Shown in pieces: positions 261 to 25,935 of a stretch of 34,627 bases of DNA. Numbering within the stretch: position 1 is the stretch's first letter; every line of letters starts with the position of its first letter. The position numbers were made by a program, and so were the translations under genes. Source of the stretch: Bordetella parapertussis (lineage in GTDB: Bacteria > Pseudomonadota > Gammaproteobacteria > Burkholderiales > Burkholderiaceae_B); the NCBI GenBank assembly GCA_945865935.1, contig CAMBFI010000024.1, forward strand, positions 1 to 34,627, written 5' to 3'. Below the pieces are notes generated by a model, which saw only the letters and a program-made list of their open reading frames with translations, had not been told where the DNA came from and ran no database searches.

Positions 261-335
261 GACGAACAATCTGTTGATTCAGACAGATGAGATGTAAAAG
301 AGTTCAGTCTTTGTAACTAAATCGAAGGTGATCTC

Positions 336-25598: not shown

Positions 25599-25694
25599 GG
25601 TGTATCTAAGTTTTGTTGAGTTTAATTGTCTTGAAAAGGAATGTCTCAGCAGAAAAATAGCATAAGTTGTTGCAAAAACCCCGCAGCCCTTAAA

Positions 25695-25746
25695 CTGTGT
25701 TTGCAAACAGTGCTGTATACATGTACAGTACTGTTTATGCGTACAA
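25695..25746. promoter_or_regulatory. Three tandem LexA-like dyads (CTGT-N8-ACAR) at 18-bp steps
   Basis: Box 1 (25695-25710) is CTGTGTTTGCAAACAG, box 2 (25713-25728) is CTGTATACATGTACAG and box 3 (25731-25746) is CTGTTTATGCGTACAA. Each starts exactly 18 bases after the previous one, separated by TG and TA. CTGT-N8-ACAG is the LexA-binding consensus of gamma- and betaproteobacteria; box 2 with its flanks matches the E. coli 20-base SOS consensus at all but 3 positions. A GntR-type regulator is an alternative, since GTATAC also occurs in such sites. The array covers the promoter of the small gene at 25777. Confidence 0.65.
25701..25729 (+). promoter_or_regulatory. Promoter of the small membrane protein gene
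   Basis: TTGCAA at 25701-25706, a 17-base spacer, then TACAGT at 25724-25729. Box 1 of the operator array covers the -35, box 2 the -10, and box 3 the expected start site near 25736. Bound repressor would block polymerase at every step. The leader would be about 40 bases. Confidence 0.55.
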
Positions 25747-25776
25747 CTCGTCGTACAACATTTCAGGAGCCCCACC

Positions 25777-25935
25777 ATGACTCGCGAAGTTCGCCACAAC
25801 TACTCCCCAAGCTTTGTCGCTGCACACAGCCAATCCCCAAGTCTTAAAAGCAAAGTCGCAGATGTCTTTCTGCTGGCCTTCTGGGGGGCAATGATCCCTG
25901 CGTTTATGTGGGTGGGAAGCGCTGCCGGATTCTAG
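25777..25935 (+). CDS. Small single-transmembrane protein of unknown function, putatively SOS-controlled
   Basis: 52 aa, MTREVRHNYSPSFVAAHSQS at the start, not matched to a family I can name. AGGAG at 25765-25769 is a perfect ribosome binding site with 7-base spacing. The N-terminal 27 residues are polar and basic. Residues about 28-51 form one hydrophobic helix (VADVFLLAFWGAMIPAFMW, then VGSAAGF), predicting an inner-membrane protein with the N-terminus in the cytoplasm. Upstream are a good promoter and three LexA-like boxes. SOS-controlled small membrane proteins such as TisB (toxin) and SidA (division inhibitor) share this general plan but not the sequence, so such a role is only a hypothesis. 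The stop lies in a 17-bp tandem duplication. Confidence 0.72.
   Translation: MTREVRHNYSPSFVAAHSQSPSLKSKVADVFLLAFWGAMIPAFMWVGSAAGF

What the first reader, a model, noticed from the sequence alone, without database searches (positions are those of the whole stretch)
25695..25746. Triple LexA-like operator array with strict 18-bp period
Three CTGT-N8-ACAR dyads follow each other with exactly 18-bp spacing (25695, 25713, 25731). Two are perfect CTGT-N8-ACAG and the third ends ACAA. They cover the -35, -10 and start region of a promoter reading into a small membrane protein. Most LexA targets carry one box. Two or more side by side is known for lexA itself and for tightly held toxic products such as colicins. 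Three in register suggests very tight, cooperative control. A GntR-type repressor is the main alternative.
Basis: partly seen in the sequence, partly recalled or inferred. Interest (0 to 1): 0.78.

Follow-up and report, generated by a model that had tools for sequence, protein, structure and literature searches.

The report
Triple LexA operator, SOS membrane protein
Three DNA-damage (SOS) repressor sites lie side by side over the promoter of a tiny, unnamed membrane protein gene that many relatives in one bacterial family keep under the same kind of control, making it a good candidate for an SOS brake on cell division in these bacteria.

Summary
In detail: three CTGT-N8-ACAR dyads at 25695, 25713 and 25731, exactly 18 bp apart. 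They are very probably LexA operators. The same genome has lexA, whose promoter carries the same motif, two boxes 18 bp apart among them; recA and imuA carry it too. The predicted -35 (TTGCAA) lies in the centre of box 1, the -10 (TACAGT) over the end of box 2, box 3 near the start; this promoter stands in 24 of 25 same-genus loci. The gene is a 52-aa single-helix protein without Pfam or NCBIfam match. Orthologues were found in 79 of 101 family genomes, and outside the family in none of 386 order genomes at E 0.01 with the best profile, though few candidates per genome were scored. Of 79 loci read, 59 have LexA sites at their own promoter, 19 lie behind a LexA-boxed PA0069-family radical SAM gene, 1 has only degenerate dyads. 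Best reading: an undescribed LexA-repressed small membrane protein, most likely an SOS cell-division inhibitor working like SidA or YneA. LexA control is strongly supported; the division role is inference. Nothing was measured.

The parts
25695..25710 (.). LexA box 1, CTGTGTTTGCAAACAG
   Evidence: 16.2 bits; conserved in same-genus loci
25713..25728 (.). LexA box 2, CTGTATACATGTACAG (strongest)
   Evidence: 21.2 bits, 0 random positions as high in 3.29 Mb
25731..25746 (.). LexA box 3, CTGTTTATGCGTACAA (weak right half)
   Evidence: 11.2 bits; perfect in L004, L005, L017, L020, L024, altered in the other same-genus loci
25701..25706 (+). predicted -35 element TTGCAA, in the centre of box 1
   Evidence: TTGCAA-N17-TACAGT in 24 of 25 same-genus loci and in L110 and L112 of another genus; no start site mapped
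25724..25729 (+). predicted -10 element TACAGT, overlapping the end of box 2
   Evidence: inference from conservation
25765..25769 (+). ribosome-binding-site-like AGGAG
   Evidence: direct reading
25777..25935 (+). 52-aa single-transmembrane protein gene (stop TAG included), the regulated gene
   Evidence: orthologue in 25 of 25 same-genus genomes searched and 79 of 101 family genomes; 19-residue hydropathy peak 1.74 at residues 30-48

Best explanation
The array is a triple LexA operator built into the promoter of a 52-aa single-pass inner-membrane protein. LexA dimers on boxes 1, 2 and 3 cover the -35, the spacer with the -10, and the start, so the promoter is shut while LexA is intact. DNA damage activates RecA, LexA cleaves itself, and the gene is released. 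The protein, with a hydrophilic N-terminus in the cytoplasm and a strongly conserved C-terminal helix in the membrane, most likely halts cell division during the SOS response by binding a septal wall-synthesis protein through its helix, as described for YneA and as SidA is thought to do. Supported by sequence evidence: LexA present, shared motif, promoter geometry, conservation of operator and gene. Inferred: LexA occupancy, induction by damage, membrane topology, and the division target.
For: Same motif and same 18-bp tandem at this genome's lexA, and the motif at recA and imuA. The exact double box occurs at 42 places in 28 of 32 same-genus genomes, 0 control hits; by position 5 places are at lexA, the other 37 are box pairs of 31 arrays of the type seen here (the gene behind was read in the loci, not for G042, G044, G429, G041, G043, G045). 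Promoter TTGCAA-N17-TACAGT in 24 of 25. Wider family, 79 loci of 78 genomes: 59 with a site of at least 12 bits within 450 nt of the stop, 52 of them with two or more, against 4 of 1580 shuffled regions. 19 lie behind a radical SAM gene (found in just these 19 of 79) with a LexA box before it: 16 (box threshold 10 bits), three in longer fetches (L149 and L148; L266). The last, L245, has three degenerate dyads in 18-bp register. So SOS control comes in two arrangements, own boxes or an SOS operon. Division role: single helix whose residues are the conserved part (D29, W36, A38, P41, G47, G51, F52 invariant in 22 sequences); PF03846 (SulA) hit 1 of 101 family genomes, and that ORF is ImuA by NCBIfam; no phage match; damage-induced small integral membrane division inhibitors are described in several bacterial groups, acting on FtsW or FtsN in Bacillus and Caulobacter (PMC13396833, passages read).
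Against: No expression, binding or phenotype data. Box 3 of this window judged alone is at chance level for a genome (42 random positions as high). Five other perfect-half places in G000 also lie outside genes (see full report). 18 of the 22 family genomes without a detected orthologue do have lexA, so SOS does without the gene there. No sequence likeness to known inhibitors by Pfam or NCBIfam. Single-helix SOS proteins are not all division inhibitors: DinQ depolarises the membrane and did not change filamentation (PMC3567139, passages read).
Confidence: 0.6

Rival explanations
1. LexA operator as above, but the product is a TisB/DinQ-like membrane-depolarising peptide that slows growth or favours dormancy, with translation held down by a structured leader or an antisense RNA.
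For: Small single-helix SOS protein under several LexA boxes, like DinQ, whose promoter overlaps two LexA operators (PMC3567139, passages read). In 20 of 32 same-genus genomes a two-hairpin leader with covarying stems sits between the boxes and the start, recalling the highly structured tisB start region named in the same paper.
Against: The leader was not found in 12 of 32 same-genus genomes, the window's own among them (one of the 12 has a weak hit at E 0.07). The protein has a helix of fixed sequence at one chromosomal place across a family, unlike scattered type I toxins (the last recalled). No antisense RNA was looked for beyond Rfam in six loci (no match).
Confidence: 0.2
2. LexA operator, but the product does something else at the membrane during SOS, for example helping repair, the envelope, or the SplB-like radical SAM enzyme.
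For: In 19 of 79 loci the gene follows the radical SAM gene, apparently in one SOS operon; that gene is PA0069 family in L148. LexA control of a beta-proteobacterial splB is already predicted in print (PMC3323433, section 8 read).
Against: In the other 60 loci no radical SAM gene was found in the stretch held (about 0.4 to 2 kb upstream), so no fixed pairing is required. Whether it lies elsewhere in those genomes was not tested.
Confidence: 0.16
3. The dyads bind a different repressor, for example GntR-type, and the likeness to LexA boxes is accidental.
For: The single motif is not enriched genome-wide (32 against 45); box 1 has an unusual TTGCAA core; a perfect dyad also lies before a GntR/MocR-like gene (L031, named by eye).
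Against: lexA, recA and imuA carry the same motif; lexA has the same 18-bp tandem; the TTGCAA core is explained as the -35 element; LexA-type boxes persist in family genomes that keep neither this spacing nor this neighbour.
Confidence: 0.03
4. The array serves the divergent TPP-enzyme gene (start 25601, minus strand) rather than the small gene.
For: It lies in the shared intergenic stretch.
Against: In relatives read for this the upstream neighbour is a peroxiredoxin-like gene (L110, L112, L150) or the radical SAM gene (L146-L149), while boxes stay with the small gene or its operon; the -35/-10 reads towards the small gene.
Confidence: 0.01

Closest known systems
SidA (Caulobacter) and YneA / SosA / ChiZ, small damage-induced membrane division inhibitors
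   Same: Small single-helix membrane protein under LexA-type control, in a family where no SulA was found in 101 genomes.
   Different: No Pfam or NCBIfam likeness; no LysM domain as YneA and ChiZ have (PMC13396833); division effect untested. The Caulobacter LexA motif is GTTC-N7-GTTC (PMC12700426, passages read), here CTGT-N8-ACAG.
Colicin operators with two overlapping LexA boxes
   Same: More than one LexA dimer on one promoter, said to keep a lethal product off (PMC2994835, passages read).
   Different: Three abutting boxes 18 bp apart; chromosomal gene kept across a family; no match of the 361-bp stretch in the plasmid collection.
TisB and DinQ, LexA-controlled single-transmembrane toxic peptides of E. 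coli
   Same: Small membrane protein, more than one LexA operator at dinQ (PMC3567139), leader structure in part of the relatives.
   Different: Longer N-terminus, conserved helix sequence across a bacterial family, no antisense RNA identified.
Beta-proteobacterial SOS regulon with splB and the hypothetical genes hypA and hypB (PMC3323433)
   Same: A splB-type radical SAM gene under LexA.
   Different: That study took beta-proteobacteria with several chromosomes (Burkholderiaceae and Comamonadaceae); section 8 and passages read. The gene here was found only in the window's family. Whether hypA or hypB resembles it could not be checked, as their sequences were not at hand.

Membership tests
LexA (SOS) operator, CTGT-N8-ACAG type | Genome encodes LexA | tested here: met
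   G000:C7:886-1563, E 5.2e-70, over cut-off
LexA (SOS) operator, CTGT-N8-ACAG type | Same motif at lexA and recA of the same organism | tested here: met
   in the genus recA 20 of 21 loci, lexA 25 of the 25 loci parsed out of 26 given (L065 not parsed; two fragmentary lexA loci not given)
LexA (SOS) operator, CTGT-N8-ACAG type | Overlaps a promoter of the gene it controls | tested here: met
   conserved TTGCAA-N17-TACAGT in 24 of 25 loci; by sequence only
LexA (SOS) operator, CTGT-N8-ACAG type | Conserved upstream of orthologues | tested here: met
   of 79 loci 59 at the own promoter, 19 before the radical SAM operon, 1 degenerate
LexA (SOS) operator, CTGT-N8-ACAG type | LexA binds; transcript rises on DNA damage | not testable with these tools
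   needs footprint and RNA measurement
SOS-induced small membrane division inhibitor (SidA/YneA class) | LexA control | tested here: met
   as above, by sequence only
SOS-induced small membrane division inhibitor (SidA/YneA class) | Short protein with one transmembrane helix | tested here: met
   52 aa, one hydropathy maximum; the structure job had not finished at the last look
SOS-induced small membrane division inhibitor (SidA/YneA class) | Filamentation on expression; divisome partner | not testable with these tools
   needs experiment
SulA | SulA domain (PF03846) | tested here: not met
   no Pfam match for the protein; the single hit among 101 family genomes is an ImuA ORF
Type I toxin (TisB/DinQ) | Antisense RNA to the mRNA | not tested
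   no Rfam match in 6 loci, which does not exclude an unknown RNA

The most novel reading that the evidence does not exclude
The gene is the founding member of an undescribed SOS checkpoint protein family of the Alcaligenaceae: a single-helix division inhibitor with no relation to SulA or SidA, held by up to three abutting LexA dimers and, in part of the family, by a second lock, a new two-hairpin leader RNA that gates its translation.
Probability: 0.35. Interest if true: 0.72.

Novelty: new member of a known kind. Interest (0 to 1): 0.52.

Why it matters
No SulA was found in 101 genomes of this family, and the papers found here do not say how its members stop dividing after DNA damage. A LexA-repressed small membrane protein kept across the family is a concrete candidate that one deletion and one expression experiment could test in a freshwater strain (Zwartia hollandica carries it). 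If right, the 'small helix' type of SOS brake arose in one more lineage. Three abutting operators with the predicted -35 inside one of them is also a clear case for measuring how operator number sets the threshold of a possibly toxic SOS gene.

Tried and rejected
Plasmid (blastn) and phage (tblastn) searches gave no match, so a mobile origin is not supported. Rfam on six loci gave nothing. The apparent SulA in G438 was first taken as a lone SulA beside lexA; NCBIfam shows the ORF is ImuA, so the idea that SulA replaces the small gene there was dropped. The idea that the gene goes strictly with lexA holds only in part: 18 of 22 family genomes without a detected orthologue have lexA, and G480 (82% complete) has the orthologue without a found lexA. 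The first order-wide profile gave three weak hits outside the family (G154, G216, G248, E 0.004 to 0.007; two partial, one with a stop inside); the better profile did not return them and gave one broken hit instead (G310, E 0.048, two stops); all four are taken as chance. Limits of absence: at most 16 and 11 candidates per genome were scored, at most 42.

Redone steps: minus-strand loci were first read in the wrong direction (redone in 11); the first parse of the lexA loci picked a neighbouring aminotransferase-like ORF (redone in 19); four family loci were mis-parsed (L236, L245, L246, L250) and placed by coordinates. The 15-sequence protein alignment and the family one search had wrong coordinates and were repeated.

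The four same-genus genomes without the exact double box (G015, G046, G023, G012) were read at the locus (L012, L010, L011, L188) and have the array with an altered half-site.

Papers: PA0069 with LexA and SOS, 0 papers; Alcaligenaceae with LexA and SOS response, 0 papers; the other listings, judged by titles and abstract starts, showed nothing on this gene. A paper on a beta-proteobacterial LexA motif was not held (its existence is recalled).

Full report
What is there. The window holds CTGTGTTTGCAAACAG, CTGTATACATGTACAG and CTGTTTATGCGTACAA at 25695, 25713 and 25731, 2 bp between each, period 18. Behind them stand an AGGAG and a 52-codon gene at 25777. The genome lies in one genus (as grouped by the tool) with Zwartia and Sheuella: named records with this locus are Zwartia hollandica, Z. 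panacis, Z. vadi and Sheuella amnicola, besides many MAGs. NCBI places Zwartia in Alcaligenaceae, Burkholderiales. 'The family' below means the tool's family f1, which I take to be Alcaligenaceae.

Is it LexA. lexA is present. Its promoter in G000 has boxes at C7:751, 806 and 824; the last two are 18 bp apart, as in the array. Such a perfect double box at lexA is seen in 5 of 32 same-genus genomes only (by position). recA carries CTGTTTTTATATACAG in G000 and a like box in 20 of 21 same-genus recA loci. imuA (NCBIfam NF033429) has CTGTATATTTGTACAG beginning 46 bp before its start. A matrix from 25 distinct lexA/recA/imuA boxes gives 16.2, 21.2 and 11.2 bits for the three boxes.

Against this, or neutral: the bare motif is not enriched in the genome (32 places, reversed control 45). 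Of these 32, seven are the lexA, recA, imuA and array boxes. Most of the rest lie inside ORFs, but five do not: L031 (before a GntR/MocR-like and an aminotransferase-like gene, 14.9 bits), L073, L077, L084 and window 271 (16.35 bits); they were not followed. Box 3 alone would be matched 42 times in a genome-sized random sequence. The weight rests on the tandem and on conservation.

Promoter geometry. In 24 of 25 same-genus loci TTGCAA is followed after 17 bp by TACAGT (L004 has TTGCCA). TTGCAA is the centre of box 1 and TACAGT ends box 2. In another genus, where the box over the -35 is missing (L110, L112), the same TTGCAA-N17-TACAGT stands, with LexA-type boxes from the -10 on; L111 has TTGCAT. 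So the odd core of box 1 looks like a -35 element and box 1 like an extra operator laid over it. This is inference from conservation.

Conservation. The orthologue was found in 25 of 25 same-genus genomes (own included) and 0 of 16 from other families in the first search. With a 15-row profile it was found in 79 of 101 family genomes, 35 of 43 genera. With a 22-row profile over 399 order genomes it was found in 8 of the 13 family genomes listed and in none of the other 386 at E 0.01 (one broken hit at 0.048; at most 11 candidates per genome scored, so absence is lightly tested). The neighbourhood was read in the window and four relatives: an EamA-type transporter (window, L108), rplS (window, L106, L110, L112) and a NUDIX gene (window, L110, L112) follow, while the upstream neighbour changes between the TPP enzyme, a peroxiredoxin-like and a radical SAM gene (names by eye except the Pfam ones).

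Family tally. One search lists 80 places in 79 genomes; 79 places (78 genomes) were tallied, the 80th (G382) had been read as L150 and shows two dyads. 59 of 79 have a site of at least 12 bits within 450 nt of the stop, 52 of them two or more, 7 one. Among neighbouring sites the commonest spacing is 18 bp (17 intervals in 15 loci), then 32 (11) and 33 (6). Shuffled regions gave 4 of 1580. The other 20: 19 have a radical SAM gene just upstream by tblastn, with a LexA box before it in 16 (threshold 10 bits; several begin CTGG) and in three longer stretches (L149, L148; L266). L245 alone has no site over threshold; its longer stretch L267 shows three degenerate dyads in 18-bp register. The radical SAM gene of L148 is PA0069 family (NF033668). 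LexA control of splB-type genes in beta-proteobacteria was predicted in 2012 (PMC3323433, section 8 read), so that part is known.

The protein. 52 aa here; in relatives the N-terminal part varies, up to about 165 aa if the first ATG is used. The last 25 residues are the conserved part: D29, W36, A38, P41, G47, G51, F52 are invariant in 22 sequences. Hydropathy shows one membrane helix. No Pfam or NCBIfam model matches. Conservation of particular helix residues, not of hydrophobicity alone, fits binding to a membrane partner better than pore formation; this is inference.

Function. Small damage-induced membrane proteins stop division late in several bacterial groups, through FtsW or FtsN where known (PMC13396833, passages read). 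No SulA was found in 101 family genomes; the one PF03846 hit is ImuA. I therefore commit to a division inhibitor that works like SidA or YneA, at about 0.6 for the full statement; LexA control by itself I hold at about 0.95. It is not filed as a member of any known inhibitor family, as no sequence likeness was found.

A second feature in relatives. In 20 of 32 same-genus genomes a two-hairpin leader lies between boxes and start; the 22 strong model hits (E below 1e-10) all lie next to an array, and two weak ones (E 0.003 and 0.07) do not. Six of 14 pairs change on both sides (reached by 10 of 500 shuffles), no shuffle of 500 reached the covariation score, and slid partners score much lower; two pairs never vary. 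The alignment rows are closely related and the shuffles do not allow for that. Another genus (g189) has a hairpin with a like TAGGGTCC loop and a second hairpin (partly by eye). The window's genome has no hit.

Verdict. The finding is real and correctly read. LexA operators are a known kind, and two overlapping boxes on colicin genes are known (PMC2994835, passages read); in Caulobacter about 97% of SOS promoters have one box (PMC12700426, passages read). New, as far as the searches listed under Tried and rejected go, is the gene: an SOS-controlled gene kept across a bacterial family, without a name in Pfam or NCBIfam.

Noticed in passing
L013:1361-1437 and like places in L007-L009 and L014-L024 (upstream of the small gene): A two-hairpin leader RNA (TTTTGCCGGTTCTAGGTCCCCGGC-AACCACC...GGTGGTT) with covarying stems between the LexA boxes and the start codon in 20 of 32 same-genus genomes; no Rfam match in the loci tested; no hit in the window's genome.
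   Followed up: partly
L249, L251, L253 (genus g189), about 310-340 nt before the stop of the small gene: A hairpin with a TAGGGTCC-type loop followed by a second GC-rich hairpin, perhaps the same leader element in another genus (partly by eye).
   Followed up: partly
L146-L149, L266 and 14 further family loci: LexA box before a PA0069-type (SplB-like) radical SAM gene with the small membrane gene next.
   Followed up: yes
window 271-286: A further perfect CTGT-N8-ACAG dyad (CTGTTGATTCAGACAG, 16.35 bits) beyond the end of the ORF at 336-1001; what it belongs to was not looked at.
   Followed up: no
L031:1501-1516 (G000:C2:193082): Perfect dyad CTGTTTACCAGTACAG between a GntR/MocR-like regulator and an aminotransferase-like gene (named by eye), probably that regulator's own site.
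   Followed up: no
L117, L129, L131, L142: MAG contigs titled Bordetella parapertussis that carry this Zwartia-type locus; probably mislabelled records (titles only).
   Followed up: no
window 25668-25678 and like places upstream of box 1 in many same-genus loci: A recurring TGTTG(C/T)AAAAA stretch some 6 to 27 bp before box 1, of unknown role (by eye).
   Followed up: no
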